Source of the DNA: a virus
Virus record (IMG/VR): IMGVR_UViG_3300042914_004234
Location: 1-35,920 of that record
Length of the DNA: 35,920 bases
Strand: one strand, 5' to 3'
The translations under genes were made by a program, and so were the position numbers. The stretch's first letter is position 1. Every line of letters starts with the position of its first letter. A model generated the notes under the pieces. The model saw nothing but the letters and a program-made list of their open reading frames with translations, was not told where the DNA came from and searched no databases. Positions 393 to 21,964 of the stretch are shown one piece after another.

Positions 393-1313
393 ATGTATCC
401 AGTCCTCACGCCCACCTCGATGCACTACTTTCATGACGAGCTTCGCAAGCTTGCCGCCGCTCCCCACATCCTACCGGCTGCCGCATCCAAGGCGTTGATG
501 TCCGCGGGTGCGCTTGGCGGGGTTGGTGCAGGTGTAGGCGCTGGGATTGGTGCGCTTGCTGGCGGCGTTCGTGGGTATCGGGCTGCCCGACAAGAGGGCG
601 CTGGGGTGCTGGATTCGGTTCGGGCGGGTGGTGGTCAGGCACTCCAAGGGGGCCTGTTAGGCGCAGGGGTAGGCGCTGGCGTGGGCGGCTTGGCCGGCGC
701 TGTTGGCTCGCGCATGTCCCCCGACAAGATGGAGGCCATTCGGAGTCGGTTGACCGAGAGTTCCGGTCTTGCGCGATTCGGGCAGCGTCAAGTTCACGGG
801 CTCACCGGCGCGACGAACGTGGACGGCCTGAAGGGTTTGGGGATGGATTCCGAGCACCGCAAGGCCACGTTGGACCAGCTCAAGGGATCGGCACCTACCG
901 CCAACCGATGGGAGCAGTTCCGTGGGAAAACGCCGGAGCAGGTTGCGGCTCGCCACCGGGACGACATCTCAAGGGCCTCGGAGGGATTGGCGGCTGCGCG
1001 CCGGGCGGAGGCGATGGGGTTGACCAGTCTGCCAGGGATTGCGCGGTCAGCCGTGAACGCTCCGCTGGATACGGCGCGTGCGGCTCTCGACCACCAGCTG
1101 AAGGGCACGGACGCCGGGACGCAGGGTCTGACGCTCGGCCTTTCCGGGCTGGGTGTTGGGATGGCCGCACGGTCACAGGAAGGGGACCAGCAGGGTGACC
1201 GCCTGAAGCGAGTGGGCCGAGCTGCGCTACACTCGGGGGCAGGGATCCTCACCGGCGGGTTGCCCATCCTCCCGAACATGCTGGCCAGCTCGATGCTGAC
1301 GGGTAACTCATGA
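393..1313 (+). CDS. Glycine-zipper membrane-active protein, unknown function
   Basis: 306 residues. I chose the ATG at 393 because AGGTGGA lies just upstream and the preceding gene ends at 385; the open frame runs further upstream but only overlaps that gene. Residues about 30-60 and 85-110 are Gly/Ala-rich segments with small residues every fourth position (GVGAGVGAGIGALAGG, GAGVGAGVGGLAGAVG). These are typical of glycine-zipper membrane insertion. A third hydrophobic Gly-rich stretch ends the protein. The middle is soluble and charged. A RKLAAA motif near residue 18 matches the K-x-A-[S/A/G] motif recurring in other virion genes here. The stop overlaps the portal start (ATGA at 1310-1313), so the two are probably translationally coupled. 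A virion protein acting in DNA ejection would fit, but this is inference. Confidence 0.75.
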   Translation: MYPVLTPTSMHYFHDELRKLAAAPHILPAAASKALMSAGALGGVGAGVGAGIGALAGGVRGYRAARQEGAGVLDSVRAGGGQALQGGLLGAGVGAGVGGLAGAVGSRMSPDKMEAIRSRLTESSGLARFGQRQVHGLTGATNVDGLKGLGMDSEHRKATLDQLKGSAPTANRWEQFRGKTPEQVAARHRDDISRASEGLAAARRAEAMGLTSLPGIARSAVNAPLDTARAALDHQLKGTDAGTQGLTLGLSGLGVGMAARSQEGDQQGDRLKRVGRAALHSGAGILTGGLPILPNMLASSMLTGNS

Positions 1314-3277
1314 GCTTCTTTGGTCCGACTGCCTCGACGGTGAACCTGACCCCCCAGCGGTACGGGGGGATGACACAGGGGCGCATCTCCGGTGGCCTGC
1401 AGCCCGGCATGATGTACCCGTCGCCGTTCTTCGACGTGGCGCACACGTATCTGCCCACCACCGTGAAGCAGCTCTTTCGGTGGTCGAGGTACTACTACCT
1501 CACGAACGCCATCGTGGGGACGACCGCTTACCGGCTCTCGGAGTACCCCGTCACCGACATCTGGGTGAAGCACGAGGACACCAAGACGCGCGACAAGTGG
1601 CGCACGTTCCTGTTCAAGATCTTGCAGATCCGTACGTTCCAGATCGAGCTCGGCCTGGACTACAACGTGTACGGGAATGGGATCGTGACGATCGCTTTCC
1701 CCTTCGTGAAGCACCTCATCTGCATGAAGTGCAAGGCGCAGGGTACGGCCCGATCCCTTCGTCCGCATTGGACGATGTCGGAGTACACGTTCAAGCTCAA
1801 GTGCCCAAAGTGTGGTCATCATGGAAAGGCCGCTGCACGGGACATGTACGTGCGCAACTGGCGCCTCATCCGCCTCCTCCGCCACAACCCGGAGAACATC
1901 GATACGACGTACAACGAGATGACGGGACGGCAGACGTACTACTACAACCTCCCGACGTCGGTGAAGAACGACATCGTGCTTGGTCGGCAGGAGATCATCG
2001 AAGAGACGCCTCAGCTCTACCTGCAAGCGATCGCCGAGAACAAAGCGGTGGTGTTCAACCCGGACCTCGTCTTCCACATGAAGCGGCCGGGGTTGGCCGA
2101 TTCTGACAGGGCGTGGGGTGTACCCTGTACGCTTCCCGTGCTGAAGGACCTGTTTCTCCTCCAGGTGATGAAGAAGGCGCAGGAAGCCGTCGCGCTCGAG
2201 CATGTCCTTCCGTTGCGCGTGCTGTTCCCGCAAGCGGGAAGCGGGTCGTCTGACCCCTACTCCTCCATCGACCTGTCCGACTGGAAGAACAAGGTGGCCA
2301 CGGAGATTCAGCGGTGGAAACTCGATCGGAACTACATCCCGATCATGCCGCTGCCCATCGGAAATCAGACCATCGGCGGAGACGGCCGCACGATGTTCCT
2401 GACGCAAGAGATCACCCAGCAGATGGAGACCATCCTGGCTGGCATGGGCGTCATGCGCGAATTCGTGTACGGCGGGATGAGCTGGAGCGGATCGAACGCC
2501 TCTTTGCGGATGCTCGAGAACTCTCTCCTGCGGTACATGGAGCGGCAGCAAGACTTCCGAGACTGGGTCGTCAAGAGCTGCGCGGACTACCTGGGGTGGC
2601 CGGAGGTGGAGACGGGTGCGCAGCCTTTCAAGATGGCGGACGACCTTCAGCGGAAGTCGCTCGAGCTCCAGCTGAACGCGTCTGGTTTGCTCAGCAGCAC
2701 CACCTTCCTCAGCGGCATGGACTACGACTTCGAGAAGGAGGCGGTGCTTACCGAGAAAGAGACGGACCTCTCCATGCGAGCTCAACGTGCCAAGCAAGTG
2801 GCACAGGCAAAGCTGCAGGGGGAGCTGCAGGTCATCCAGGCAAAGTACACCCAACAGGCCCAAGGGATGATGCAGCCGCCTCAACCGGAGGGTCAGCCCC
2901 CTCAGGCTGCCGCACCTCCGCCGGAGGGCGAGCAGCCCGCACAACCTCCGCCTTCTCCGGAGGAGCAAGCGTCTACAGAGGCCCCCGCGGGCGGGTCCCC
3001 TGCGGAGCAGGCGTCCGCAAGCCCGCTCGGCGCTCAGCCTCCTGGTGTGGACATCCGAGTGATCGCGGACATGACCGCGAGGGCGATCGAGGCGTTGCCC
3101 CTACCTGACCGGGCGGCGCGGATGGCTGCCGTGCAGGCCATGTCGGAGCCGTTGGCCGAGCTCGTGGGCCGCATTCTTGCGCAGCGTGGAGTACAGCTGG
3201 CGCCCGACCCGGTAGGAGTAGACAGCCGTCCCTTGCCTGAGGCAGGCCCCCCGCAACGCCTGTCCGCGTCGGTGTAG
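1310..3277 (+). CDS. Portal protein with inserted zinc ribbon
   Basis: 655 residues. Tailed-phage portals form the dodecameric ring through which DNA enters and leaves the head. Support here is a typical portal length, the aromatic N-terminal region, the alpha-helical core with a Met/Gln-rich stretch (QQMETILAGMGVMREF) and SGSNASLRMLEN-type sequence typical of the portal stem/wing region, plus proximity to packaging and head genes. Residues 138/141 and 165/168 are two CxxC pairs (CMKC, CPKC) forming a zinc ribbon inside the N-terminal half. The C-terminal about 130 residues contain a helical Gln-rich segment and a Pro/Gln/Glu-rich low-complexity tail, common in portals. The start is the ATG at 1310, overlapping the upstream stop. 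A convergent terminator follows at 3284. The family call rests on pattern recognition, without an alignment. Confidence 0.8.
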   Translation: MSFFGPTASTVNLTPQRYGGMTQGRISGGLQPGMMYPSPFFDVAHTYLPTTVKQLFRWSRYYYLTNAIVGTTAYRLSEYPVTDIWVKHEDTKTRDKWRTFLFKILQIRTFQIELGLDYNVYGNGIVTIAFPFVKHLICMKCKAQGTARSLRPHWTMSEYTFKLKCPKCGHHGKAAARDMYVRNWRLIRLLRHNPENIDTTYNEMTGRQTYYYNLPTSVKNDIVLGRQEIIEETPQLYLQAIAENKAVVFNPDLVFHMKRPGLADSDRAWGVPCTLPVLKDLFLLQVMKKAQEAVALEHVLPLRVLFPQAGSGSSDPYSSIDLSDWKNKVATEIQRWKLDRNYIPIMPLPIGNQTIGGDGRTMFLTQEITQQMETILAGMGVMREFVYGGMSWSGSNASLRMLENSLLRYMERQQDFRDWVVKSCADYLGWPEVETGAQPFKMADDLQRKSLELQLNASGLLSSTTFLSGMDYDFEKEAVLTEKETDLSMRAQRAKQVAQAKLQGELQVIQAKYTQQAQGMMQPPQPEGQPPQAAAPPPEGEQPAQPPPSPEEQASTEAPAGGSPAEQASASPLGAQPPGVDIRVIADMTARAIEALPLPDRAARMAAVQAMSEPLAELVGRILAQRGVQLAPDPVGVDSRPLPEAGPPQRLSASV

Positions 3278-4708: not shown

Positions 4709-5946
4709 GCAGCCCTCACGGTCAGCCGAGAGCGCTGGGCCGAGATTCGGTCTGCGACCGGGCGGAGGTTCGGGGTGACCACCTTCAGGTGGTGCACGAG
4801 CTCGTCGACCACGATCAGCGCCACGTCGAGGACGCCCGCCTGGTCCGCCTGGTCCATGAGCGTCCAGATGGTGTTGATCTCCTCCGCCGGTGCCGGAGTG
4901 CTCTTGGCCCTGTACTGGTACACCCGCTGACGCATCGCCGCGTACACCAGGTAGGCCACGTCGAGTTGCAGCTGGCTGGGCTTCCATTTCCCCGCCAGCA
5001 CTTCGTCCATCGTGGGCAGGTTGAGCTCCTGGATGTACGTGCGAAGCTCCGAGATCGGCCCGAGGCCCACGGCGCCGGCCATGGCCAGGTCGATCACCTC
5101 CTCGGTTTCGTTGATGCAGACGCCGGTCGCCATGATGCGGGCAGCGGTCGACCACGAACGAGAGGACGGCCACGCGCGCGAGGCCAGCGCCGGGTCGGAG
5201 GGCCGGAGGTGGAGCTGCGTCTCGTTGCGTTTCAGGTACTCGGAGATGACGCGCACCGCCGAGCGGTAGTGGACTTCCCAGCCCGCTGCCACCTGCCCCT
5301 CCAGCTCCTGGAGCGTTTCGAGGCTCGAGTACGGGGGGAGCTCACCGAGCTCGTACTTGCTCCAGGTCGACACGTCCGTGCGGGCGATCTCGAAGTGCAG
5401 GAGCCGGTTGGCGAACGGCGCACCAAGCCGGAACATGCCGCCCTGGTGCACGCCGTTCGCCGCAGCGACGGTGCGCACCCCCTTCGGCAGCGGCAGGCTC
5501 CCGAACCGACGGGTCAGGATGGCGCCTTGGATGGCCTTCTGTACGGAGGGCGGCGCATCGCCGATCTCGTCGAGGAACAGGATGGACTCCTTGGCGTTGA
5601 CCGCATCCTGCACCTGCGGGAGAGCGGGCACACGCCGCACCTCGGGTTCGCGCTTTCCGGACGGGTCGAGGATGGAGACCAGCGCGCCGCCGACGTCCGG
5701 CGGCTCCATGGAGGACCCGAACACCTCGAACGTCGGCAGGAGGAGCTCGGAGGCCACGCCCGTGATGCGGTCGGTCTTTCCGATGCCGGCCTCCCCCCAC
5801 AGGATGACGGGCGCACCCCACGCACACGCGGGGTCGGCCGGGCCGCGGCGCTTGTTTGGGGTGACGAAGGCCAGGCGAAGGATGCGCTCGAGGTAACGCG
5901 TGTTGTCCATCGCGTTGCCGTGGATGTCGAGATTCTTGATGTCCAT
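4705..5946 (-). CDS. MoxR-type AAA+ ATPase
   Basis: 413 residues. Walker A is GEAGIGKT at 51-58, Walker B is ILFLDEIGD at 122-130, and sensor 1 is the Asn of VAAANG near 164, followed by an FANRLLHFEI segment of the type seen in MoxR and CobS-like ATPases. The C-terminal third is the helical lid plus a family-specific tail. The ATG at 5946 is chosen because AGGAG lies five to six bases upstream on the minus strand. It overlaps the VWA gene by GTGA, the classic genetic pairing of MoxR ATPase with VWA partner. Such pairs (MoxR/CoxD/CobS families) remodel or metallate protein complexes using ATP. Family assignment is firm; the target is not known. Confidence 0.9.
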   Translation of the reverse strand: MDIKNLDIHGNAMDNTRYLERILRLAFVTPNKRRGPADPACAWGAPVILWGEAGIGKTDRITGVASELLLPTFEVFGSSMEPPDVGGALVSILDPSGKREPEVRRVPALPQVQDAVNAKESILFLDEIGDAPPSVQKAIQGAILTRRFGSLPLPKGVRTVAAANGVHQGGMFRLGAPFANRLLHFEIARTDVSTWSKYELGELPPYSSLETLQELEGQVAAGWEVHYRSAVRVISEYLKRNETQLHLRPSDPALASRAWPSSRSWSTAARIMATGVCINETEEVIDLAMAGAVGLGPISELRTYIQELNLPTMDEVLAGKWKPSQLQLDVAYLVYAAMRQRVYQYRAKSTPAPAEEINTIWTLMDQADQAGVLDVALIVVDELVHHLKVVTPNLRPVADRISAQRSRLTVRAA

Positions 5947-7168: not shown

Positions 7169-10100
7169 GTGGCATACTCCGACCCCAACTCCGCCTTCGA
7201 TCACCTGCACACGGAGACCTCGGAGGCCCTCGCCTCCCACTTCCCCATCGTCGGGAAGAAGTACACGGTGAAGCTCGCCGGGACGACGCTGGGTCAGCGC
7301 CTCGACCCCAACGACATTCGTTCGCAGTACCAGAAGCGGGTGGACGGTGGGTCGTACTCAGTGCCACTGTACGGGAACCTCCAGCTCGTGGAGAACGAGA
7401 CGGGGAAAGTCGTGGAGGAGCGCAAGCTGCATCTCCTCGACCTCCCGCAAATGACGAACCGGTTTTCGTACATCGTTGGCGGTAAGGAGTACCAGGTAGC
7501 CAACCAGTGGCAGTCACGCGCAGGTGCGTACACGAAACGCGGGCAGAACGGCGAGCTGTCCACGCGGTTCAACGTGCTGAATCGGAACCAATTCGACCTG
7601 ACCTTCCACCCGGAAACCAGCAACGTGGAGATGGAGGTCAAGTCAGCGCGTATCCCCGTGTACCCGCTCCTCAAAGCGTTGGGTGCGTCGGATTCGGAGA
7701 TCGAAAAGCGCGTGGGTAAGGTGGCGTTCGAGTCCATGCGGGACGCGCGCGGTGTCGGGTCAGCTTTGCGCCAGTTCTACAAGACGACCACGCGGAAGGA
7801 CGCGGAGTCCGACGAGGCGGCACATGCGCACTTCGTAGACCAGATGAAGGAGTCCGTCATGGACCCGCAGGTCACGAAGCACACGCTCGGCGCGGAGATG
7901 TCTCATGTCACCGCGGACACGCTCCTTCGTAGCATCGAGAAGCTGCAGAAGGTACACGGGGGAGCTCCCGAGGACGACAAGGACTCTCTCGTGTTCAAGG
8001 GCCTGCGTTCCATCGGGGACTTCGCTGGTGACAAGATCCGAGCACACGGTAAGGCCGTGCGGGAGCGCGTCGGTCGGCAACTCACTTCGGGGACTACACT
8101 TCGCCGCATCATCCCGCCCGGTCTGTTCAACGCGCCGCTGCGTGAGACATTCACGGACAACGCGGCGTCGGAGCTCGCAGCACAGATCAACCCGGTCGAG
8201 ATGATCGGGAAGAACTTCCAGACAACGGTGCTCGGCCCAGGTGGCATCACCAGTGAGGACAAGATCCTCGACTCGGTGAAGCTCATCAACCGGTCACACT
8301 TGGGCTTCCAAGACACGGTCGTTACCCCGGAATCCGGGCGTACAGGGGTGAACCTCCGTCTCCCTCTGGGGCTTCAGAAGGTGGGCAAGGACGCCAAAAT
8401 CTCGGTGTACAACCTGCGCACGGGTGCGCCCGAGATGGTGGACACGGGTACGTTCTTGACGTCCCACGTGGTCCTGCCCGATCAGGTGTCGTGGAAGAAC
8501 GGCACACCGGTCCCGGTCGCTGCGGACGTCAAGGTGGCGGGCAAGGACAACGAGATCGAGGTGATGCCCTTCCACAAGGCGCACTACGTGATGCGCCACC
8601 CGAGCCAGGTGTTCTCCACCACCACGAACTTGATCCCATTCCTGGCCAACGTGTCGGGTAACCGGGCCTCGATGGCGACGCGTCACATCGAGCAGGCGAT
8701 CTCACTTACGGACCGTGAGCCCCCGCTCGTACAAGCGGCTTCGGGTCACTCAAATCCACACCTTCGGACGTTTCACGACGTCATTGGGCGGCAGAGCGCG
8801 CACATCTCGCCGTTCAACGGGAAAGTCGTGGCGGTGAAGCCGGACGGCATCCACATCCAGACGGAGGCGGGGCTGAAGGAGGTGCAGATCTACAACCACT
8901 TCCCACTCAACGACGCGAAGTCGACCCTGCACTCCACCCCGGTGGTGAAGGTCGGGGACGAGGTGACGAAGGGCCAGCTTCTAGCGGACACGAACTACAC
9001 GAAGAACGGCACGCTGGCGCTTGGAAAGAACCTGCGTGTTGCGTACCTCCCTTTCCGTGGCCTGAACTTCGAAGATGGGGTGGTCGTGTCCGAGACGGCA
9101 GCGAAGAAGCTGACCTCGAACCACATGTACAAGGACCAGCTCACGGTCACTCCGGAGACGATTCTCGACAAGAAGAAGTTCCTGTACCACGTCGGCGGAG
9201 GGTACCGAAAAGACCAGGTCGAGAACATCGGCGATGACGGTGTTGTGCGTGTGGGCAGCAAGCTGCGTCCCGGGGACCCTATGGTCCTCGCGATGTCCCC
9301 GTACGACCTCAAGTCCCGAATGGATGCGAGGTCGATCAATCGTGCGCTCACGGGGGCGCACAACGACAAGTCCCTGCGGTGGCATGGGGACGTCGAGGGT
9401 GAGGTCGTAAGCGTGCACCGGTCGAAGGACGGTGTGCACGTGCATGTGAAGACCACGGAAGCGGCGAGGGTCGGAGACAAGTTGTCGTCCGCGAACGCAA
9501 ACAAGGGCGTCATCTCGATGATCGTCCCTGACCACATGATGCCTCACACTCCAGACGGATCGCCCATCGAAGTAGCACTCAACCCTTGCTATGACGACAA
9601 GACCGAGTTTTTGACCAGGCGCGGTTGGGTCCGAGGTCCGGAGCTGGTCGACGAGGACATCTTCGCCACGATCAACCCGACGACGCTCCGGCTCGAGTAC
9701 CAGCGTCCGGTGCAGGGCGTGTACCGCTGGAGGTACACGGGAAAGATGTACCGGCTGAAGAACGCGCAGCTCGATTTGTGTGTGACCCCCAACCACAAGA
9801 ACTTCGTCGCGAAGCGAGTACCTGGGGCACTGGGCCCTATCGACTTGGGCTCCGTGCCGCCGGGCACTTTCCAGTTGGAGGAGGCGCAGGCAGGCTTTGG
9901 TCAGCCGCGCCGGCACCTGAAGGCTGCCTCGTGGGAAGGCACCCCCGTACACACGGTGCACGTGCCCGCCGGGTCTCAGTGCGTCACAGGACCGAAGAAC
10001 CAGCCACTGAACTTGTCGGAGAGTGACTACGCCGAGCTCATGGGGTGGTACCTGTCGGAGGGGTACTGCCAAAAGACCAAGTCGGGTGGGTACGTCGTGG

Positions 10101-13100
10101 CCATCTCTCAGTCGCGTACGGCCAACTCGGAGAAGTACGAGCGCATCGTAGCCCTCCTGACACGCATCGGGCTTTCCCCCGTCTTGGGCGACGAAGACAT
10201 CCGAGTTCACCACAAGGGCCTCTTCGAGCTTTTGAAGCCGCTTGGGTATCAGCACGAGCGATTCATCCCGGAGAGTGTGCAATCCCTCCCTGCGGCTTCC
10301 CTGCGCGTGTTCCTCGACGCTTACCTCATGGGGGATGGGAGCCGACGGGATCGACCGTCGGACGGGCACCACGGCACGATGCGGTTTAGCACGACGAGTC
10401 GAGCCCTGGCGGACGGGATCCAGCTCGTTGCATTCAAGCTTGGCATGGTCGTCAACGTTCATCCGCCAAAGGTGCGCATGCGCAGCCAGATGGAGCGCCC
10501 GTGCTACGAGCTCTCGATTGGGGCGCGTCACCGTGCCCCTTGGGCGAACTGGTCGGAAGAGACAAAGAAGAACCAGACGGAAGAGTGGGTGGACTACGAC
10601 GGCACGGTGTACTGCACGGAGGTGCCGAACGGCGTCCTCGTGGTACGACGCAACGGCAAGGTAGTGATTTCGGGCAACAGCGGCGTGCCCGGTAGGATGA
10701 ACCCCTCCCAGTTGTTGGAGACAGCGGCGTCAAAGATCGCTCTCAAAACTGGCAAGACGTTCATCGTTCCAAACTTCAAGCACGGGTACGATGCTGTGGC
10801 GCACGTACAGTCGGAGCTCGAGAAGCACGGGCTGACGGACACGGAGGAGCTCATCGACCCGGTCAGCAAGCAGAGTCTCGGGAAGGTCATGGTCGGACAC
10901 CAGCACATCCTCAAGCTGGTTCACCAGTCGGACAAGAAAATCGGAGTGGCTTCCGGCATGACGCTGCCTGGGGTGCCCTCGGACGAGAAGTACGACGCGA
11001 ACCTGCAGCCGAAGGGGGGATCTCGCCTCGGGTCCCTCGGTACGTACGCGCTTTTGGCGCATGGTGCCGTGCACAACCTCCGTGAGTTTCAGACTTTCAA
11101 GGGAGAAGGTGAGGACCGTGAGGCCGACGGTTCCAAGCGCTGGCCATCGCAGCACGTCGATGTGTGGAACGCCATTCAGACGGGGGCTCCGCTTCCTCTT
11201 CCCAAGAGCTCGTTTGCTTTCCACAAGTTCACGGAGATGCTCAAGGGGTCAGGCATCAACGTCGAGAAGAAGGGGCACGAGATCATCGCCAGCCCGCTGA
11301 CCGACGCGCATGTCCTCGAGCTAGCTGGGAACCGAGTGCTCCCCAAGCCTGGTGACATCGTCAACGCCAAGATCGACAAGGCGACCGGAGAGCTCCAGCC
11401 TCGCCCGGGCGGGCTGTTCGACGTCAAGCTGACGGGGGGTCACAACGGAAAGAAGTGGTCTCGCATCGAGCTTCACGAGCCGATGCCGAACCCCATCTTC
11501 GAAGGGCCGATTCGCGCGTTGACCGGACTGAGCGCGGAGCACTTCCACGGCATCATCTCCGGCACCCACGGGGTGTCTGCCTCCGGCAAAGTGACCCCGG
11601 TCAAAGATGCGGTTCACCACGGGGGGCACGCCATCGCTCACCTTCTGAAGGGGATCGACGTCAAGAAGGAGCTGGAGGCTACCACCCAGGCGCTGAACAA
11701 CGCCCCGCCCTCGAAGGTCGATGGCATCCTCAAGAAGGCCAAGTACCTCCGCGCACTCGATGGTCTTGGGCTCAACCCCCACGACGCGTACATCATGAAG
11801 AACGTGGCGGTCATCCCGCCCGCGTTCCGGCCCGTGTCCGTGCTGGGGGACGGCAAGAACATCAACGTGGGTGACGTGAACCGCATCTACCGAGATGTCG
11901 GCATCCTGAACGAGCGCATGGGGCACTCCGCGCTGGACCAAGCGCCGGAGGTGAAGGCTGCCGTACGAAAGGACTTGTACGAGAGCATCCGGCAGATCAG
12001 TGGCGACGGCATCCCTTACGCCGATGCAAAGCACAAGGGGTTGCTGCATTTGCTGGCGGGGCCCGCGCCGAAGCAGGGATTCATCCAAAAGCGCCTGACC
12101 CAGAAACGACAAGACTTGTCGCTCACCGCTGTCATCACACCGGAGCCCGCACTCCATCTCGACCAAGTCGGGCTCCCGAGGGACAAGGCGCTCGAGCTCT
12201 TCCGACCGTTCGTGGTGCAGAAGCTTCAAGAGATGGGCTACGCCAAGCACCCTCTCGAGGCACGAGCTGTACTGGCAAAGGCGGGGCCGGAGTCGTTCGC
12301 GGCACTGGAGAAGGTCGTTGCCGACCGCCCCGTACTCATCAAGCGTGACCCCGCACTCCACAAGTACTCCGTGCAGGGATTCGATGTGAAGCTCGTCGAG
12401 GGCAACACTATGAAGCTTCACCCGCTAGTTTGCGGGGGATTCACCGCTGACTTCGACGGTGACACAATGCGCGCTTACGTGCCGATCTCCAAGGAGGCGG
12501 TGCAGGAAGCACACCGCATGAAGCCGTCTCAGAACCTGTTCGCAGAGAGCACGGGTCAGATCATGTACGTGCCCTCGCTCGACTCAGCGCTCGGGCTCTA
12601 CAAGATGTCTCTGCCTGGGATGAAGACCGACCACAAGTTCACTTCCACCCAAGACATCCTGACAGCCGCCAAGTCCGGGAAGATGGGTCCGCGTGACATC
12701 GTACAGTTGAACGGGAAGCCCACCACTGCAGCCCGTGTGTTGCTCGCTGACGCGTTGCCGGAAGCGATGCGGCCCAAGATGCTGCATGGGGTGGACGATC
12801 ACATCAATGGGAGCCGGCTCCGCGATTTGTACACGGAGATCGGAAAGTCGCATAAGGCCGAGTTCGCCAAATCCGCCGACGCCTTGAAGGACATCGGTAA
12901 CCACGCCGCGTTCGGCACTGTCCCCATCCCCAACTCCAAGGACTACCTGACCATCGGCGCTCACTCCCTTTCCCTGGCGGACATGAAGACGCTGGCGGAG
13001 GTGCGTGACCCCGTGGTCAACGCTGCGCATCACGACGTTGCCGAGATCCGGAAGAAGTTCGGGAAGACCCCGGATGCGGACGCGAAAGTCGTGGCGAGGT

Positions 13101-14599
13101 ACAAGGAGGCGGAGAAGCAACTTCGCGCCCACATCGCTGCTATCCCCCACGAGAAGGGCAACAACCTCCACACGATGTACCTGGCGGGGGTCAAGCCGGG
13201 GTGGGACCAGTACAAGCAGCTGATCTTTGGCCCGATGCTGCTCGAGGACTCCACGGGAAAGACCATCACCACGCCGGTGACGCGCAGCTACTCGGAAGGA
13301 CTCGATGTCGCGGGGTACTGGACCCAGATGCACGGCGCACGTAAGGGTTCCGTGCAGAAGGTGCAGGAGGTCAGCGAGCCCGGCGCACTCACCAAGCTCA
13401 TCATGCAGTCCACCCTCAATACGGTGGTGGCTGCGCCCGACTGCGGCACCTCCAGGGGCGTGTTGCTACCGGTGAGTGGCGCGGCTTCGGACGTGCACGA
13501 CCGTGTGCTTGCACGTGACTTCTCTCACGGAGGGCTGCATGTCCCGGCGGGGACTATCCTCGACCCCAGGGTCGTCGACAAGATCCGTGCGGCCAGCCCT
13601 ACGGCACAGGTGCTCGTGCGCTCCCCGTTGAGGTGCGAGCACGGCAACGGGGTCTGCCAGAAGTGCGCTGGTCTGTCGCCCAACGGGCACCATCACCCGT
13701 TGGGGACAAACATCGGGGTCATCGCGTCCCAGACGGTGGGCGAGCGTGCGGTGCAGTTGATGCTCAAGAGCTTCCACTCCGGAGGCACCGCCTCCATCGG
13801 TGGAGGCCCCACGCTCATCGGCGGGTTCAAGCGGCTCGAGCAGCTCACCACCCTGCCGGAGAAGGTACCCAACCAGGCCACGCTGGCGATGCGCTCGGGG
13901 ACGATCAGCAAGATCGAGCACAAGCCTACGGGTGTGGACGTGTACGTCGACGGGCACAAGCACTTCGTGGGCAAGGACCCTGCGGGGCAGGAGCTCCACA
14001 AGCCTCACGCTGGCTCCCAGTGGGCGGGACTGTCCGTGGGTCAGACCGTGAAAGCGGGAGACCACCTGTCGGATCCGACTCGTAGCATCGTGAACCCCCG
14101 GGACCTTTACAAGGCCACGGGCAGTATCGAGGTCGTACAGAACCACCTGGCGGACGAGATGCACAAGCTGTACGCCAGTGAGAACGTGAAGCGTCGACAC
14201 TTGGAAACCGTGGTGCGTGGCCTCACCAGCGTCACGAAGGTGGTGGACCCTGGCGGTGCCAGCGGGATCCTACGCGGGGAGTTCAAGCCGTTGGCGTCCG
14301 TGCACAGCCTCAACAAGGAGCTGCAGAAGGCAGGACGCCCCCTCATCGAGCACACCCCGACCCTCCGTGGAGTAGAGACCGTCCCTCACGACATGCAGGA
14401 CGACTGGATCGCCAAGCTTCAGCACCGACGCATCATCGACACCCTCACGGGCGCGGCTGCGCTAGGATCGAAGGCGAACATCCATGGCACCCACCCGATC
14501 ACGGGGTTGGCGTACGGTGCACGCTTCGGATTGACGAAGCGGCACTCGGCGCAGCCCGGGCTTCACGACCACAAGGACGTACCGGAGCACTACTACTGA
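7169..14599 (+). CDS. rpoBC: Fused beta-beta' DNA-directed RNA polymerase, intein-containing
   Basis: 2476 codons from a GTG start; about 2112 residues after removal of the intein (807-1170). The beta part comes first, with LPQM..RFSYIVGGKE near 90, a GPGGITSE segment near 356 and GDKLSS..NKGVIS near 770. The conserved LNP-SGVPGRMN motif is split by the intein, and HQHILKLVHQ and LGTYALLAHGAVHNLRE close the beta C-terminal clamp part. The beta' part follows without a linker: GGLFDV; IPPAFRP; GLPRDKALELFRPF; RDPALHK; and the catalytic TADFDGD with Mg-binding Asp 1761, 1763 and 1765. It continues with HGARKG at 2055, Cys 2092, 2156, 2163 and 2166 (second beta' zinc site, bacterial spacing) and IGVIASQTVGE. 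The first beta' zinc ribbon is missing. The stop overlaps the next start (TGATG). It transcribes DNA, presumably phage promoters. No alpha, omega or sigma homologue is visible here. Confidence 0.95.
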   Translation: MAYSDPNSAFDHLHTETSEALASHFPIVGKKYTVKLAGTTLGQRLDPNDIRSQYQKRVDGGSYSVPLYGNLQLVENETGKVVEERKLHLLDLPQMTNRFSYIVGGKEYQVANQWQSRAGAYTKRGQNGELSTRFNVLNRNQFDLTFHPETSNVEMEVKSARIPVYPLLKALGASDSEIEKRVGKVAFESMRDARGVGSALRQFYKTTTRKDAESDEAAHAHFVDQMKESVMDPQVTKHTLGAEMSHVTADTLLRSIEKLQKVHGGAPEDDKDSLVFKGLRSIGDFAGDKIRAHGKAVRERVGRQLTSGTTLRRIIPPGLFNAPLRETFTDNAASELAAQINPVEMIGKNFQTTVLGPGGITSEDKILDSVKLINRSHLGFQDTVVTPESGRTGVNLRLPLGLQKVGKDAKISVYNLRTGAPEMVDTGTFLTSHVVLPDQVSWKNGTPVPVAADVKVAGKDNEIEVMPFHKAHYVMRHPSQVFSTTTNLIPFLANVSGNRASMATRHIEQAISLTDREPPLVQAASGHSNPHLRTFHDVIGRQSAHISPFNGKVVAVKPDGIHIQTEAGLKEVQIYNHFPLNDAKSTLHSTPVVKVGDEVTKGQLLADTNYTKNGTLALGKNLRVAYLPFRGLNFEDGVVVSETAAKKLTSNHMYKDQLTVTPETILDKKKFLYHVGGGYRKDQVENIGDDGVVRVGSKLRPGDPMVLAMSPYDLKSRMDARSINRALTGAHNDKSLRWHGDVEGEVVSVHRSKDGVHVHVKTTEAARVGDKLSSANANKGVISMIVPDHMMPHTPDGSPIEVALNPCYDDKTEFLTRRGWVRGPELVDEDIFATINPTTLRLEYQRPVQGVYRWRYTGKMYRLKNAQLDLCVTPNHKNFVAKRVPGALGPIDLGSVPPGTFQLEEAQAGFGQPRRHLKAASWEGTPVHTVHVPAGSQCVTGPKNQPLNLSESDYAELMGWYLSEGYCQKTKSGGYVVAISQSRTANSEKYERIVALLTRIGLSPVLGDEDIRVHHKGLFELLKPLGYQHERFIPESVQSLPAASLRVFLDAYLMGDGSRRDRPSDGHHGTMRFSTTSRALADGIQLVAFKLGMVVNVHPPKVRMRSQMERPCYELSIGARHRAPWANWSEETKKNQTEEWVDYDGTVYCTEVPNGVLVVRRNGKVVISGNSGVPGRMNPSQLLETAASKIALKTGKTFIVPNFKHGYDAVAHVQSELEKHGLTDTEELIDPVSKQSLGKVMVGHQHILKLVHQSDKKIGVASGMTLPGVPSDEKYDANLQPKGGSRLGSLGTYALLAHGAVHNLREFQTFKGEGEDREADGSKRWPSQHVDVWNAIQTGAPLPLPKSSFAFHKFTEMLKGSGINVEKKGHEIIASPLTDAHVLELAGNRVLPKPGDIVNAKIDKATGELQPRPGGLFDVKLTGGHNGKKWSRIELHEPMPNPIFEGPIRALTGLSAEHFHGIISGTHGVSASGKVTPVKDAVHHGGHAIAHLLKGIDVKKELEATTQALNNAPPSKVDGILKKAKYLRALDGLGLNPHDAYIMKNVAVIPPAFRPVSVLGDGKNINVGDVNRIYRDVGILNERMGHSALDQAPEVKAAVRKDLYESIRQISGDGIPYADAKHKGLLHLLAGPAPKQGFIQKRLTQKRQDLSLTAVITPEPALHLDQVGLPRDKALELFRPFVVQKLQEMGYAKHPLEARAVLAKAGPESFAALEKVVADRPVLIKRDPALHKYSVQGFDVKLVEGNTMKLHPLVCGGFTADFDGDTMRAYVPISKEAVQEAHRMKPSQNLFAESTGQIMYVPSLDSALGLYKMSLPGMKTDHKFTSTQDILTAAKSGKMGPRDIVQLNGKPTTAARVLLADALPEAMRPKMLHGVDDHINGSRLRDLYTEIGKSHKAEFAKSADALKDIGNHAAFGTVPIPNSKDYLTIGAHSLSLADMKTLAEVRDPVVNAAHHDVAEIRKKFGKTPDADAKVVARYKEAEKQLRAHIAAIPHEKGNNLHTMYLAGVKPGWDQYKQLIFGPMLLEDSTGKTITTPVTRSYSEGLDVAGYWTQMHGARKGSVQKVQEVSEPGALTKLIMQSTLNTVVAAPDCGTSRGVLLPVSGAASDVHDRVLARDFSHGGLHVPAGTILDPRVVDKIRAASPTAQVLVRSPLRCEHGNGVCQKCAGLSPNGHHHPLGTNIGVIASQTVGERAVQLMLKSFHSGGTASIGGGPTLIGGFKRLEQLTTLPEKVPNQATLAMRSGTISKIEHKPTGVDVYVDGHKHFVGKDPAGQELHKPHAGSQWAGLSVGQTVKAGDHLSDPTRSIVNPRDLYKATGSIEVVQNHLADEMHKLYASENVKRRHLETVVRGLTSVTKVVDPGGASGILRGEFKPLASVHSLNKELQKAGRPLIEHTPTLRGVETVPHDMQDDWIAKLQHRRIIDTLTGAAALGSKANIHGTHPITGLAYGARFGLTKRHSAQPGLHDHKDVPEHYY
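9587..10678 (+). other. Intein with LAGLIDADG homing endonuclease inside the beta part of the polymerase
   Basis: 364 codons in frame, polymerase residues 807-1170. It begins with Cys (CYDDKTEFLTRRGW), has a block-B-like VTPNH, two LAGLIDADG motifs (LMGWYLSEG at 957-965 and FLDAYLMGDG at 1048-1057, acidic residues E964 and D1056), and ends VVRRNGKVVISGN followed by Ser as the +1 residue. Excision joins LNP to SGVPGRMN, restoring the beta motif that reads LNPLGVPSRMN in bacteria, so both borders are fixed by the extein sequence. The penultimate residue is Gly, not the usual His; the VRRNGK-x-GN ending is a known variant form. All splicing residues I can check are present, so it looks active. 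The endonuclease would spread the element among related phages. Confidence 0.93.
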
Positions 14600-15777
14600 T
14601 GCCTCTGAAGCCATCTCCCCCGCCCCTACCGTCCCGGTTTCGCTCGTCCTACACGCACAAGGAGGGGGCGAACCCGGGTCAGGTGGAGATGCTGGAGTGC
14701 CGTGTCGTGAACGTCGACATGGTCAACTGGACGGTCGACGTGTACGCCGTCTTCGACCAACGTCGTTTCTTCCACGTGCAGGTGGGCGCCCCCTATCTGC
14801 ACCACTCCAACGGGGAAGGCATCTACGTCATGCCGGAGCTCCATGCGAAGTGCATGCTGTGCCTGCCGGCAGACAGCTCACCTCCGCATGTCGCGTACTT
14901 TCTGATGGCGTTCGAGAACGTGGACACTGCATCGGAGGAGGCTCCGGAGGGTACTGTGTCCCGTGGGGTTACCGGCATGAAGCCATCCGGCGCATCGTTC
15001 GCCGGGGGGCGTCCGCGGCACAATCCCGGAGACATCGTGCTGCGAGGCAGGGACGGTAATTTCGTTGTCCTCCGGCGTGGCGGCGTGTTGGAGATCGGCT
15101 CAACAGAGCTCTGCCAGCGCATGTGCATCCCTCTGTCGAACACCATGGTGGACGTGTCCGAGAACTACTACCACCACACCCCTGGGGGCACTGAGTACTG
15201 GGGCATCCTACCCGGCCGTAACGAGGGGAAGTCGGCCACGGAGCACTTCCAGAGTTTCCGTGTGTGGGCCGAGGACAAGTTCGCCGACGTCCGCGTCAAG
15301 ATCGGAAAGGTCGGCGACCCTGCGAAAGGCCTCACCGGGAATGGGGTAGTCGGCGATGTGGTCTACGAGGTGTCCGTAGCCCCACAAGGCATCGATCCGG
15401 AGAGCGGCGCGTACCACGACGTGAACAAGCTCGTGTACCGGATGACCGTGGACCGAGAGGGCAACACCGTGTTGGGGGCGAAGCAAGACCTGACGGTGTA
15501 CGCAGCTCGGCGGCTGCGGCTCGAGTCGGGCGGGTCGATGACCATCCAGGCAAAGGCGGACATCGACATGAAGGCCAGTAGCGGGGTCACCATCGATGGT
15601 GGTGCGTTCACGACGATTCGAGGCAGTGTTGTGAAATTGGGGCCGGGTGCTAAGCCCGTGGCGACTCAGGGCAGCATGGTCAGGCTTACGTTCCCGTTCA
15701 CCCCGATGGTGGCTGCCCCCGTCCCCATGATCCTCAACGGGATCATCATCACTGGCTCACCCACGGTTCTGGCGTAA
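14599..15777 (+). CDS. Baseplate/tail spike protein (gpV/gp5-like)
   Basis: 392 residues; the start overlaps the polymerase stop (TGATG). Residues about 30-110 look like the OB-fold of phage baseplate spike proteins (CRVVNVDMVNWTVDVYAVFD, then a GIYVMPELHAKCMLCLP strand pair). The region around 140-180 has PGDIVLRGRDGNFVVLRRGG, as in spike and VgrG-like proteins. Residues about 290-350 are short repeated strands ending in polar turns (LTVYAARRLRLESGGSMTIQ and following), typical of a trimeric beta-helix needle. The last 40 residues are hydrophobic and Pro-rich. It would pierce the cell envelope at infection. A central-hub or needle role is well supported by the fold pattern; which named family it belongs to needs profile comparison. 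Confidence 0.75.
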   Translation: MPLKPSPPPLPSRFRSSYTHKEGANPGQVEMLECRVVNVDMVNWTVDVYAVFDQRRFFHVQVGAPYLHHSNGEGIYVMPELHAKCMLCLPADSSPPHVAYFLMAFENVDTASEEAPEGTVSRGVTGMKPSGASFAGGRPRHNPGDIVLRGRDGNFVVLRRGGVLEIGSTELCQRMCIPLSNTMVDVSENYYHHTPGGTEYWGILPGRNEGKSATEHFQSFRVWAEDKFADVRVKIGKVGDPAKGLTGNGVVGDVVYEVSVAPQGIDPESGAYHDVNKLVYRMTVDREGNTVLGAKQDLTVYAARRLRLESGGSMTIQAKADIDMKASSGVTIDGGAFTTIRGSVVKLGPGAKPVATQGSMVRLTFPFTPMVAAPVPMILNGIIITGSPTVLA

Positions 15778-16415: not shown

Positions 16416-16452
16416 CCTTTTCCACAAATCGCATCTATACTCGGTGAGTCCC

Positions 16453-18474
16453 ATGCGAAACCTCTACCTCCCGAAGCCCGTGTACAACATCCCCTCCTTC
16501 GTGAAGGAGGCGGCGGCGCTGGTGCCCTTGTCGGAGCACACGGAGAGCTGGCCGGAAGAGATTCTCCGGGAGGTGCACAAGCAGCTCCCTTACGTCGCGG
16601 ACTACAACCTCGACGTCGAGATGAGCCGCATGGACGCCGAGCTCGGGTACGCCTTCGGGCACGTGACCGTCAGCGGGCGGTCCGAGGTCACCCCCCGACC
16701 TGGGGCCGAGTCCTTCTCCGGAGTTCAGAAGGTCCGGATCCCGCTCATCGTGAAAGAGCGGAAGCTGTACCCGCTCGACACGCTGGTCACTTCCGATGCG
16801 GTGATGCTGCCCCTGACCGAGTCCCGTCTCCGTCAGGCGCTGTTCCGCCCCCAGATGTTCGACGTGACGGCGACTCCCCCTGCCGACCGCAGCTTGATGT
16901 CGCAGCTCTATCCGCCGTACCGCCAGAACCTGGGCGCGATCTCCGCGGGTAGCGCCGGCGGCGACATGCACCTCGTGGGCAAGATGGCGTCGGAGAGCTC
17001 GGCAAAGCTGCGGGAGCAGATCGAGGCGGCCCTCGAAGCCAAGAAGAACGCCGGCATCCCCAACTCGTCGAATCCCAAGGCTCCCGCCGGTCCGTCCATC
17101 AAGCAGCAGCTGCAGAAGTCCGCGTCCCTCCTCGAGGCGATCCAGTCCCAGGTTCCGCCCGAGCTCGTCATCGAGGTGGCCCCCCTGCTCGTGGGACTGA
17201 CCGAAAAGAACGCGGCAGCTGCCCAAGCCGTGGCGGCCATCACCCGGTTCGAGTTCGCGCCGGACCCGGAGAAGACCGCGGGTGACCGTCCGGAGATCGA
17301 CGTCTGGCAGGTGCGCCAACTGGACGATGGTGACGGCTACGTGCTGAAAGTCGCGGACGTCACTGGAGGTGTCTCCGAGTCCGTGATCGACCGGCGACAG
17401 CTGGTGAGCCTCCTCGGCGCCAAGATCGCGATGGAGGTCGACACTGCGGGGGCTGTCACTGGGGCCACGTCGGAGTCCGAGGCTCCTGCCGACGAGCCCG
17501 AGGCCTCGGTCATCACCGAGGCGGGCACGTACAAGGTCATGGACCTCCAGGGGAAAGAGGTGACGGGCCTCGTGTTCCCGAACCTCCTCGATCCGACGAG
17601 TGGCAAGGCGGTGCCGAGCGCCTTGTTCCTGAACGGATCGATCACCGCGTACCAGCCTGACATCGTCGGAGTGCGGGCGGGGGACGTCACCGAGCCCCCT
17701 ACTGGGGAGCCCGGCGGCATGGGTGCGTGGTACATCCCGGACGGCCCGGACGGCCCCACCATGACGATCCCGCTCAAGGTGCTGGGGCACCTACCCGGCG
17801 GTTTCCTCGTGGAGAAGGCGGATGGGGAGCAGGCCACAGTGGAGCTCCCGCCGAGTGCGAAGTTCGTGCCCTTCGGGCAATCCGACACGACGAGCCTGCT
17901 CAGTTCGGAGGAGTCTGCAGCCCTCGCGAAGAGTGCACAGCTCGGAGTCGAAATTCGGGCGAGCTCGTCCACCAACATTGAGTTGGCCCCGGTAGTCGGC
18001 ACGAAAGAGGCGGGGGCGCGGGAGCGGTACGACTACGACGGAGCGCTGTTCGAGCTTGCTCGAGCGGGCGTCCGGCTCGAAGAGGCTTCCACCAAGATCG
18101 CCTCGTCCCTGGCGGGAAACCAGACGACCTTCGTGGCAGCCCACCCCCGCCCGCGACAAGTGATGGCGGCGGAGAAGACTGCGGCGCCGGTGGCATCCGA
18201 GCTCCGACGCATCCTGGTCAAAGAAGCGGAGGACATCCCCGACCCCCAAGCGGTGGACACCGTCCTCTCCCTCGGGTTCATCACCCCGGACAACGAGGCC
18301 ACGTACATGTCGTACCTGCCGCAACTGGAAAGCGTACAGAGCAAGCTGTGCGAGCTCCTGATTGCGGCACGTGTGGGGCTTCGCCAGGTGTCGCCCACCC
18401 CGGTGGAGAAGTGCGTGCGTGCCCTCGAGGAAGTGATCGATGGCTTGAAGGTCATCGCATTTCGGAATAACTAA
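16453..18474 (+). CDS. Large unknown protein, probably virion-associated
   Basis: 673 residues from the ATG at 16453; a GTG three codons earlier (16444) is possible, but the GGTGAG it belongs to could instead be the ribosome site for the ATG. No named domain is recognised. N-terminal 200 residues are soluble mixed alpha/beta, then a Lys/Ala helical stretch, then beta-rich segments with Asp/Gly turns (GGMGAWYIPDGPDGPTMTIP), then an acidic-basic helical C terminus. Several copies of the K-x-A-[S/A/G] motif occur (KEAA near 15, KMAS, KSAS, KTAG, KEAG, KIAS, KTAA), as in the capsid-side genes. Position between spike and terminase and this motif suggest a virion protein. Confidence 0.75.
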   Translation: MRNLYLPKPVYNIPSFVKEAAALVPLSEHTESWPEEILREVHKQLPYVADYNLDVEMSRMDAELGYAFGHVTVSGRSEVTPRPGAESFSGVQKVRIPLIVKERKLYPLDTLVTSDAVMLPLTESRLRQALFRPQMFDVTATPPADRSLMSQLYPPYRQNLGAISAGSAGGDMHLVGKMASESSAKLREQIEAALEAKKNAGIPNSSNPKAPAGPSIKQQLQKSASLLEAIQSQVPPELVIEVAPLLVGLTEKNAAAAQAVAAITRFEFAPDPEKTAGDRPEIDVWQVRQLDDGDGYVLKVADVTGGVSESVIDRRQLVSLLGAKIAMEVDTAGAVTGATSESEAPADEPEASVITEAGTYKVMDLQGKEVTGLVFPNLLDPTSGKAVPSALFLNGSITAYQPDIVGVRAGDVTEPPTGEPGGMGAWYIPDGPDGPTMTIPLKVLGHLPGGFLVEKADGEQATVELPPSAKFVPFGQSDTTSLLSSEESAALAKSAQLGVEIRASSSTNIELAPVVGTKEAGARERYDYDGALFELARAGVRLEEASTKIASSLAGNQTTFVAAHPRPRQVMAAEKTAAPVASELRRILVKEAEDIPDPQAVDTVLSLGFITPDNEATYMSYLPQLESVQSKLCELLIAARVGLRQVSPTPVEKCVRALEEVIDGLKVIAFRNN

Positions 18475-20134: not shown

Positions 20135-21964
20135 ATGAGCCAGCCTTTCTCAGCTTCTGACACGTTGGACGACGCAGACGAGGAGGTCCAGCTTCTCTCG
20201 GACGACGAGATGCGCCGCATCCACGAGGGCGAGGTATGGTTCCCCGAGCCCGAGCCCATCGAGTGGCTTTACGACGGTTCGGAGGAGGAAGACGCCGGAT
20301 TCCGCAGCACGGTTCCTCTCAAGCTGTCCGACTTCACCAAGTTCGCGTTCCGTCTGCCCTCGGGTGACACCGGAGAGTTCGCGCCGTTCTCCTTCGAGGG
20401 TCGGCGGCACATGCTTCGGATCTACGACACGTCCGCCAAGAAGATCCTCCTCATCTGCGCCCGCCAGACGGAGAAGAGCACGTCCCTTGGGAACAAGTCG
20501 ATCGGGCGGAGCTGCCTGATTCCTGGGCACAAGACGCTATACGTGTCGCCGTCCGCTCTGCAGTCCAAGACGTTCTCGATGGACCGTATCAAGGACCCCA
20601 TCGAGACGAGCGAGATTCTGAGGGGCTACACCACCAGGCACCTCAGCCAGAACGTATTCCAGAAGCAGTTCGTGAATCGCAGCCAGATCATGCTGCGTTA
20701 CGCGTTCCTCAACGCGGACCGGGTACGCGGTACGACGCCCTGGTCGATCATCCTCGACGAGTTCCAGGACTTCCTCGCGGACACCATCCCCGTCATCGAG
20801 CAAGCGTCCTCCCACGCTCCGGCGAACCACCGCACGTTCATGTACGCCGGGACACCTAAAGGGGCGGACAACCCCATCGAGTACCACTGGTCGGGGGTCA
20901 CCCGGCTAGGTAAGCCGATGTCCACGATGTGCGAGTGGGTGGTGCCTTGCGAGGGGTGCCGGCACTGGAACATCCTCGGCGAGAAAAACATCGGGAAGAA
21001 GTTCCTCATCTGTGAGCGGTGCGGGAAGCAGATCCACCCGCAACACGAGCGGGCCCAGTGGGCGGCAGGAAATGCGAACGCGGAGTACGAGGGGTACCGT
21101 ATCAACCAGCTGATGGTCCCGTGGCGAAAGTGGGACGACATCCTGGCGGACTACGGCAAGTACACCCGGGACAGGTTCTACAACGAGGTACTCGGAATCT
21201 CGTTCGACTCCGGTATCCGGCCCCTTACGCTCGCGGAGCTCAAAGCGAACTGCAACAGCAGCGTCAGTATGGCCGAGCTACGGCTCGAGGCGTTCCGCAA
21301 GCAGCTCATCTCCGACAATGCGCCCGTGTTCGCCGGAGTGGACTGGGGGCAGGACGGCTCGAGCTACACGGTTTTGACCTTGGCGACCTACGTCAACAAC
21401 CGGTTCCGCGTGTTCTTCATCCACCGGTTCGAAGGAGCGGACTTGGAGCCGGATGTCCAAGTGGCGAAGATCATCCGCATATGTAGGGCGTACCGCGTCA
21501 AGGTCATCGGCGTGGACTACGGCGCGGGGTACGTGCAGAACAAGCAACTCATCCATGCCTTTGGGGCGACGGTGGTGCAGCAGTACCAGTACGCGGTGCG
21601 TCTTCGAGCCAAGCTCGCTCGTGAAAAGAACAATCGACGCTGGATCGTGAACCGGTCGGAAATCATGAGCGACATGTTCTCCGCGCTCAAGAGGAAGAAC
21701 GTGTTCGAGCTGCCCCGGTGGGAAGAATTCGGGACACCCTACGGCCAAGACATCCGAAACATCTACACGGAGTACAACGACAAGCTGCGAATCATCGTGT
21801 ACCAGCACCGGCCGGACCGGCCGGACGACAGCTTCCACTCCATCACGTTCTGCTTCCTGGCATCGATGCTGGTTCGTCCACGCCCGGACATCATCACTCC
21901 GCGTCGTGAGCTTTTCCCCGAGCCGATCCTTTGGAGCTACGACGATGGTGCTTCTCAAGGTTGA
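20135..21964 (+). CDS. terL: Terminase large subunit
   Basis: 609 residues; the DNA-packaging ATPase and headful/end nuclease that docks on the portal. The N-terminal ATPase has a Walker A-like CARQTEKST at 108-116, with the terminase Arg and Lys-Ser but no glycine in the loop, and Walker B IILDE at 205-209. A zinc-binding insert follows with CxxC pairs at 272/275 and 293/296. The C-terminal RNase-H-like nuclease has Asp 403 (AGVDWGQDG), Asp 461 (VIGVDYGAG) and Asp 564/565 (RPDDSFHS). Length fits the family. The ATG at 20135 has GGAG ten bases upstream. Its 3' end overlaps a minus-strand gene by 71 bases. The assignment is secure from motif order and spacing. Confidence 0.93.
   Translation: MSQPFSASDTLDDADEEVQLLSDDEMRRIHEGEVWFPEPEPIEWLYDGSEEEDAGFRSTVPLKLSDFTKFAFRLPSGDTGEFAPFSFEGRRHMLRIYDTSAKKILLICARQTEKSTSLGNKSIGRSCLIPGHKTLYVSPSALQSKTFSMDRIKDPIETSEILRGYTTRHLSQNVFQKQFVNRSQIMLRYAFLNADRVRGTTPWSIILDEFQDFLADTIPVIEQASSHAPANHRTFMYAGTPKGADNPIEYHWSGVTRLGKPMSTMCEWVVPCEGCRHWNILGEKNIGKKFLICERCGKQIHPQHERAQWAAGNANAEYEGYRINQLMVPWRKWDDILADYGKYTRDRFYNEVLGISFDSGIRPLTLAELKANCNSSVSMAELRLEAFRKQLISDNAPVFAGVDWGQDGSSYTVLTLATYVNNRFRVFFIHRFEGADLEPDVQVAKIIRICRAYRVKVIGVDYGAGYVQNKQLIHAFGATVVQQYQYAVRLRAKLAREKNNRRWIVNRSEIMSDMFSALKRKNVFELPRWEEFGTPYGQDIRNIYTEYNDKLRIIVYQHRPDRPDDSFHSITFCFLASMLVRPRPDIITPRRELFPEPILWSYDDGASQG

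What the first reader, a model, noticed from the sequence alone, without database searches (positions are those of the whole stretch)
7169..14599. Phage gene encoding a single-chain beta-beta' RNA polymerase close to the cellular form
A phage polymerase carrying both large subunits in one 2112-residue chain (after splicing), with beta motifs before beta' motifs and no linker, is unusual. It retains recognisable bacterial landmarks (SGVPGRMN, RDPALHK, TADFDGD, HGARKG, IGVIASQTVGE, four-Cys zinc site 2). Known phage multisubunit polymerases are often split (phiKZ group) or single-chain and very divergent (YonO type). The shortening by about 640 residues relative to E. coli beta plus beta' suggests a minimised enzyme.
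Basis: partly seen in the sequence, partly recalled or inferred. Interest (0 to 1): 0.9.

Follow-up and report, generated by a model that had tools for sequence, protein, structure and literature searches.

The report
Single-chain cell-like phage RNA polymerase
This tailed-phage gene really does encode a complete, bacterial-type RNA polymerase core as one long protein (interrupted by a self-splicing intein), but it is one of a large, widespread phage family rather than an isolated oddity, and what seems not to have been described is that this family keeps the two big polymerase subunits joined in one chain.

Summary
Window 7169-14599 (+) is one open frame of 2476 codons; removing a 364-aa LAGLIDADG intein (9587-10678) leaves 2112 residues with beta followed directly by beta'. 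All catalytic landmarks align with E. coli. AlphaFold models of a close relative's catalytic region and of the window's own beta' half are confident (pTM 0.79, 0.82) and match bacterial RNAP (TM up to 0.81). It is not rare: 31 of 80 and 77 of 79 relatives in two IMG/VR scans carry the same full fusion. Beta, beta' and combined trees put the window inside one phage clade separate from bacterial RNAPs. This clade is very probably the published mReC lineage (Weinheimer & Aylward 2020), described there as having beta and beta' subunits; I found no statement that they are fused. Two- and three-chain forms (e.g. Salmonella phage Arash) are nested within it and are split inside beta', never at the beta/beta' junction. 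'Minimised' is overstated: the lost residues are mostly E. coli inserts SI1-SI3, plus the beta' zinc-binding domain. No alpha subunit was found in 13 related phages. The gene lies in a conserved portal-RNAP-tail-spike-terminase cassette. Verdict: real, probably active, new variant of a known kind.

The parts
7169..14599 (+). single-chain beta-beta' RNA polymerase gene with in-frame intein (2476 codons; 2112 aa after splicing)
7169..11278 (+). beta half (spliced residues 1 to about 1006; interrupted by the intein)
   Evidence: HMM and alignment to E. coli RpoB
9065..9079 (+). NFEDG = E. coli beta 811-815 (E813, D814)
9473..9508 (+). GDKLSSANANKG, active-site lysines = E. coli beta K1065, K1073
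9587..10678 (+). LAGLIDADG intein, 364 aa, inserted at NP|SGVPGRMN (E. coli beta 1100/1101)
   Evidence: homologous intein in L053 near the same site
11279..14596 (+). beta' half (spliced residues about 1007-2112), no linker, no beta' zinc-binding domain
   Evidence: AF2 model; Foldseek
12344..12364 (+). RDPALHK = E. coli beta' 425-431
12443..12463 (+). TADFDGD, catalytic Mg-binding Asp triad; the sister phage (L004) carries a second, 522-aa intein-like insert here (DFDGD|T)
13307..13369 (+). bridge helix (HGARKG at 13331-13348)
13442..13666 (+). four-cysteine zinc site 2 (spliced C1728, C1792, C1799, C1802)
13712..13786 (+). IGVIASQTVGE and trigger loop MLKSFHSGG (His = beta' H936)
1310..3277 (+). 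portal-like protein; homologues found in 131 loci, upstream on the same strand in 130
   Evidence: PHROG portal 7.6e-4; synteny
14599..15777 (+). gp5-like baseplate central spike protein; its ATG overlaps the RNAP stop (tgATG)
16444..18474 (+). conserved cassette protein of unknown function (91 loci)
20135..21964 (+). terminase large subunit

Best explanation
The gene encodes a complete catalytic RNA polymerase core as one polypeptide. After the intein in the beta active-site region excises itself, the 2112-residue chain folds into the bacterial crab-claw: the beta half supplies one double-psi barrel with the two active-site lysines, the beta' half supplies the other barrel with the Mg-binding DFDGD, the bridge helix and the trigger loop. 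Joining the beta C-terminus directly to the beta' N-terminus keeps the two pincers together, so a phage-encoded alpha is not needed for assembly. The enzyme belongs to a widespread tailed-phage clade (very probably mReC) in which fusion happened once and later lineages split the chain inside beta'. It most likely transcribes phage genes; because the gene sits between portal, tail-spike and terminase genes, it is probably made with, and possibly packaged into, the virion. Shown: reading frame, intein, motifs, predicted fold, clade, architecture survey, synteny. Inferred: splicing, activity, assembly without alpha, timing and any packaging.
For: Intact frame and correctly placed catalytic residues. 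Purifying selection: the sister phage differs by about 5% in DNA but by only 9 of 2112 residues. AF2 models: L009 segment with both catalytic regions pLDDT 84.9, pTM 0.79; window 10997-14596 pLDDT 85.3, pTM 0.82, Foldseek TM 0.78-0.81 to S. aureus and C. thermocellum beta'. Clade: fused-type phages are one side of a branch in the combined, beta-only and beta'-only trees (99-100 support). Architecture: full fusion in 31 of 80 and 77 of 79 loci; no locus is split at the beta/beta' junction. No RpoA-type domain in 13 phage records against 13 of 14 control genomes. Synteny: portal upstream on the same strand 130 of 131, spike downstream 78 of 79, TerL downstream 55 of 55.
Against: No biochemical, proteomic or expression data. 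The intein was not shown to splice. The window model covers only spliced residues 913-2112; both catalytic regions in one chain were modelled for a 54%-identical relative (L009), and the listed PDB hits for that model were bacterial beta' chains, so the beta barrel rests on motifs, HMMs and model confidence. Host alpha or sigma could still be recruited. The closest relative's contig with no sigma hit (126.7 kb) may be incomplete.
Confidence: 0.85

Rival explanations
1. Virion RNA polymerase: the single chain is packaged and ejected with the genome to transcribe early genes, like phiKZ vRNAP or crAss gp66 (a rival on role only; the enzyme itself is the same).
For: Conserved position inside the structural cassette between portal and tail spike, with stop/start overlap with the spike gene. 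No second Rpb2_6-type RNAP gene was found in four long phage contigs.
Against: A late position also fits a late non-virion enzyme; no proteomics available; the Arash and D69 annotation does not name the RNAP as a virion protein.
Confidence: 0.45
2. Late non-virion RNAP made after host RNAP has transcribed early genes, guided by a phage sigma-like factor or by host sigma (a rival on role only).
For: Sigma70 region-4 proteins above the Pfam cut-off in 3 of 13 related phage records; Cobetia phage Carin-5 carries another cell-like RNAP next to an annotated sigma gene.
Against: Most records lack a recognisable sigma, and the closest relative (G001) has none.
Confidence: 0.45
3. Recent capture of a naturally fused bacterial rpoBC (Helicobacter/Wolbachia type).
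For: The best NCBIfam match is the fused PRK09603 model (450 bits).
Against: That score is far below its cut-off of 5372; the phage clade is separate from all bacterial RNAPs tested with 99-100 support; SI inserts and the beta' ZBD are absent. Fused Helicobacter/Wolbachia sequences themselves were not in my tree.
Confidence: 0.03
4. Assembly artefact, pseudogene or cellular contamination.
For: Short environmental contig (35.9 kb).
Against: About 100 single-chain loci from many metagenomes, conserved phage synteny, near-identical protein in a second contig.
Confidence: 0.01

Closest known systems
mReC: multimeric-RNAP-encoding Caudovirales (Weinheimer & Aylward 2020, PMC7481178)
   Same: Phage RNAP alignable to cellular beta and beta', forming a clade apart from Bacteria; gene among structural genes; found in IMG/VR metagenomes, including metagenome 3300017989, from which two mReC exemplars and my single-chain loci L062 and L184 come.
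   Different: The paper speaks of beta and beta' subunits and uses 'fused' only for crAssphage; here both are one chain. The window has TADFDGD, not the NADxDGD required by their filter (83 of 103 single chains do have it).
Two-chain RNAP of Salmonella phage Arash and Vibrio phages D69/D148/D181
   Same: Same clade, portal upstream, beta joined directly to the beta' N-part.
   Different: Beta' C-part (about 606-610 aa) is a separate gene; split after the beta' catalytic barrel. D181 has a further break in beta.
phiKZ/AR9-type split RNAPs (PMC7598289)
   Same: Phage two-barrel RNAP without alpha or omega; beta' is also broken after the DPBB, as in the two-chain relatives of the window.
   Different: phiKZ-type enzymes are four to five polypeptides and very divergent; the window is one chain and scores much better to bacterial models (NCBIfam 1e-134) than to the PHROG families annotated as RNA polymerase (3e-21 at best).
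crAss gp66 / YonO / P23-45 single-chain RNAPs (PMC10770324, PMC7481178)
   Same: One polypeptide with both barrels.
   Different: Those have almost no sequence similarity to cellular RNAP beyond the region around DxDxD; the window is alignable over about 1900 columns.
Fused rpoBC of Helicobacteraceae and Wolbachia (stated in PMC7483510)
   Same: Beta-beta' in one chain, same order.
   Different: Main RNAP of a bacterium, about 2840-2890 aa by NCBIfam model length; the window is 2112 aa and from a separate phage clade.

Membership tests
mReC lineage | RNAP beta and beta' alignable to cellular homologues, in a tailed phage | tested here: met
mReC lineage | RNAP clade distinct from Bacteria | tested here: met
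   99-100 support in combined, beta and beta' trees
mReC lineage | Groups with the published mReC sequences themselves and apart from archaea, eukaryotes and NCLDV | not testable with these tools
mReC lineage | NADxDGD motif used as entry filter in that study | tested here: not met
   Window has TADFDGD; 83 of 103 single chains in the clade have NADxDGD. A search filter, not a biological definition
phiKZ/AR9-type multisubunit phage RNAP | beta and beta' each split into two or more polypeptides | tested here: not met
   One 2476-codon frame
YonO/crAss-type single-chain RNAP | No detectable similarity to cellular beta/beta' sequence profiles | tested here: not met
   TIGR02386 6.7e-129, TIGR02013 1.1e-72
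Fused bacterial rpoBC (PRK09603/PRK14844) | Score over the equivalog cut-off | tested here: not met
   450 of 5372 and 388 of 4632 bits
Two-barrel DNA-directed RNAP (fold and catalytic site) | Asp triad, two lysines, bridge helix, trigger loop, cell-like beta' fold | tested here: met
Two-barrel DNA-directed RNAP (fold and catalytic site) | beta double-psi barrel formed in the model | tested here: inconclusive
   Confident model of the relative's segment and Rpb2-type hits in BFVD, but coordinates could not be inspected and the window's beta half was not modelled
Two-barrel DNA-directed RNAP (fold and catalytic site) | RNA synthesis activity | not testable with these tools
   needs biochemistry
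Intein | Cys1 start, terminal Asn, Ser+1, LAGLIDADG domain, empty site in relatives | tested here: met
   L009, L008, L021 and L040 lack it at the same site

The most novel reading that the evidence does not exclude
The whole 'multimeric-RNAP' phage lineage is ancestrally a single-polypeptide, alpha-free beta-beta' polymerase: fusion occurred once at its base, and the split phage enzymes within it arose by later fission inside beta'. That would be a counter-example to the idea that split phage RNAPs are primitive remnants, since one independent split falls after the same barrel as in phiKZ-type enzymes.
Probability: 0.6. Interest if true: 0.72.

Novelty: new variant of a known kind. Interest (0 to 1): 0.55.

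Why it matters
Cellular RNAP normally needs alpha to assemble beta and beta'. A natural, cell-like, single-chain core from phages would be a simple model for RNAP assembly and a one-gene transcription tool, and the same clade holds one-, two- and three-chain versions, so the order of fusion and fission can be read from a tree instead of guessed. It also means that the lineage used to argue for ancient viral RNAP (mReC) probably should not be described as multi-subunit.

Tried and rejected
A single-sequence scan of viral contigs found only the sister contig; alignment-based scans were needed. The scan for Carin-5/YerA41-type relatives gave none, so how that group joins is open; it is a long branch (2.86). 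PHROG families 25354 and 24349 look like ordinary bacterial-length RpoC/RpoB, not close phage kin (inference from profile length and alignment positions). Several 'phage' records matching the query (Staphylococcus, Enterococcus, Listeria, Acinetobacter MD-2021a, Salmonella contigs) look like bacterial rpoBC contamination. The idea of a generally minimised enzyme was rejected. The cassette protein at 16444-18474 found no PDB or PHROG match. Paper searches for a fused phage RNAP beyond the crAss/YonO/P23-45 types found none; PMC10159854 describes a viral RNAP annotated 'beta and beta prime' at the base of mReC but does not say that it is one chain.

Full report
OBSERVATION. The frame 7169..14599 (+) is open for 2476 codons from a GTG that follows a stop codon by three codons. 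Pfam finds Rpb2_6, LAGLIDADG_3, Rpb1_2 and Rpb1_5 in that order. The intein is residues 807-1170 (DNA 9587-10678), starting with Cys, ending with Asn, followed by Ser, at E. coli beta 1100/1101; its removal gives NPSGVPGRMN and a 2112-residue chain. Relatives at 50-54% identity have the site empty.

ACTIVE SITE. Aligned with E. coli, the window keeps beta E813/D814 (NFEDG), K1065 and K1073, beta' R425, D460/D462/D464 (TADFDGD), the bridge-helix HGARKG, H936 in the trigger loop and the four zinc cysteines 814/888/895/898. Only five cysteines exist in the spliced chain and four are this site. The sister phage on a 126.7-kb contig is about 95% identical in DNA, yet the spliced proteins differ at only 9 of 2112 residues, which indicates strong purifying selection.

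A SECOND INTEIN. In that sister phage a further 522-aa intein-like insert sits exactly in the catalytic motif, DFDGD|TMRAYVP, absent from the window. Another insert with intein-like ends lies in L188 at the TPE|SG motif, and L053 has a homologue of the window's intein near the same place. Inteins therefore recur at the most conserved sites of this polymerase.

WHAT IS MISSING. The 637-residue shortfall against E. coli falls mainly in beta 225-352 (SI1 region), beta 936-1047 (SI2), beta' 944-1133 (SI3), beta 1125-1178 and beta' 64-95 (zinc-binding domain). SI1, SI2 and SI3 are lineage-specific insertions (established knowledge), so 'minimised' mostly means 'without E. coli inserts'. The zinc-binding domain loss is real: none of 53 clade members has three cysteines there.

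STRUCTURE. A 1200-residue segment of the 54%-identical, intein-free relative L009 covering both catalytic regions and the bridge helix was modelled at pLDDT 84.9, pTM 0.79. Foldseek's best PDB matches are bacterial beta', and BFVD matches include both largest and second-largest RNAP subunits of large eukaryotic viruses. The window's own residues 913-2112 (spliced numbering) gave pLDDT 85.3, pTM 0.82 with bridge helix and trigger-loop helices, and TM 0.78-0.81 to S. aureus and C. thermocellum beta'. I could not inspect coordinates, so the beta barrel is supported by motifs, HMM hits and model confidence, not by a direct superposition.

HOW COMMON. Scanning IMG/VR with a three-sequence alignment returned 80 loci: 31 single-chain, 27 two-chain (beta+beta'N, plus beta'C of about 600 aa where the locus reaches far enough), 17 of the three-chain type with beta + short beta'N (12 with the middle gene in the locus), 5 cut by contig ends. 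In no locus is the chain broken at the beta/beta' junction.

TREES. With 8-11 bacterial RNAPs as outgroup, the fused-type phages form one clade in the combined, beta-only and beta'-only trees and under a site-mixture model. The window's nearest relative is L009. Two- plus three-chain forms make one clade (100) lying among single-chain lineages; by parsimony beta-beta' joining changed once, splitting after the beta' barrel once within the clade (and once in YerA41), and the further split once. Caveats: quick searches, SH-aLRT support only, no archaea, root assumed on Bacteria, and the Carin-5/YerA41 group is a long branch. That single-chain lineages are paraphyletic rests on weaker forks (92), but an intact beta' in the outgroups already makes the split the derived state.

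KNOWN OR NEW. Weinheimer & Aylward (PMC7481178) described mReC as a deep phage clade encoding beta and beta' subunits; 'fused' occurs there only for crAssphage. Their filters (both COG hits, 800 aa or more, NADxDGD) would accept most single chains (83 of 103 have the motif) and reject Arash-type enzymes (AADYDGD). Two of their exemplars come from metagenome 3300017989, the source of my single-chain loci L062 and L184. I therefore think that mReC is this clade, but I could not read their supplement, so this is an inference. The published phage single-chain RNAPs (YonO, crAss gp66, P23-45) are too divergent to align to cellular profiles; fused rpoBC in Helicobacteraceae and Wolbachia (PMC7483510) is the bacterial parallel.

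CONTEXT AND FUNCTION. The cassette portal - RNAP - gp5-like spike - unknown - unknown - terminase is conserved. The spike identity rests on profile matches to T4 gp5-type spikes (E about 0.008) and PHROG baseplate families, so it is moderate. The RNAP stop overlaps the spike's start. No alpha-type domain was found in 13 phage records although the same search rings in 13 of 14 controls; sigma region 4 passes the cut-off in 3 of 13. In the window, classical rifampicin-contact residues are changed. I favour an active phage transcription core made with late genes; whether it is packaged is undecided (about even).

Noticed in passing
L098-L101, L103-L106 (e.g. L100:9095-12223, L104:2420-5494): MAGs of Armatimonadota, Poribacteria, Hydrogenedentota and a Hainich bin carry a roughly 1,020-1,135-aa single-chain 'mini' RNAP (L098 is cut by the locus end) with beta motifs (TPEGPN, GDKxSNRHGTKG) and beta' NADFDGD/NGDFDGD. 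All eight loci share a homologous ORF near it, identified as an ECF-like sigma factor in the four scanned (directly upstream in L100, L104, L106; opposite strand nearby in L103). Ordinary rpoC is present in the genomes checked. The mini proteins form their own clade. Possibly an alternative sigma-plus-RNAP pair; deserves its own study.
   Followed up: partly
L004:9001-17997 (residues 1766-2287 of the unspliced protein): The sister phage has a 522-aa intein-like insert inside the catalytic DFDGD|T motif that the window lacks: a presence/absence polymorphism at the active site.
   Followed up: partly
window 3311-5173 (-) and 4705-5946 (-): VWA/DUF2201 metallopeptidase-like protein and an ATPase (PHROG 1297) on the opposite strand between portal and RNAP; also in about ten relatives.
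   Followed up: no
window 32388-35306: 972-aa protein with an N-terminal ferritin-like domain (PF00210, 1.4e-7).
   Followed up: no
G010:C8 (L102, Herbinix MAG contig, 213 kb): Separate RNAP pieces (747, 661, 377 and 529 aa frames), probably an AR9/phiKZ-like phage contig binned with a Firmicute.
   Followed up: no
L091:4541-11366 and L092:5128-11192: Cobetia phage Carin-5 and Yersinia phage YerA41 carry an RNAP in beta'-then-beta order, Carin-5 with an annotated sigma gene next to it: a second, very divergent cell-like phage RNAP type.
   Followed up: partly
L095 (Deltaproteobacteria/Myxococcota MAG contig, 31.7 kb): Single-chain relative (49% identity) binned with a bacterium that has its own rpoBC; a hint at the host group or a binning artefact.
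   Followed up: partly
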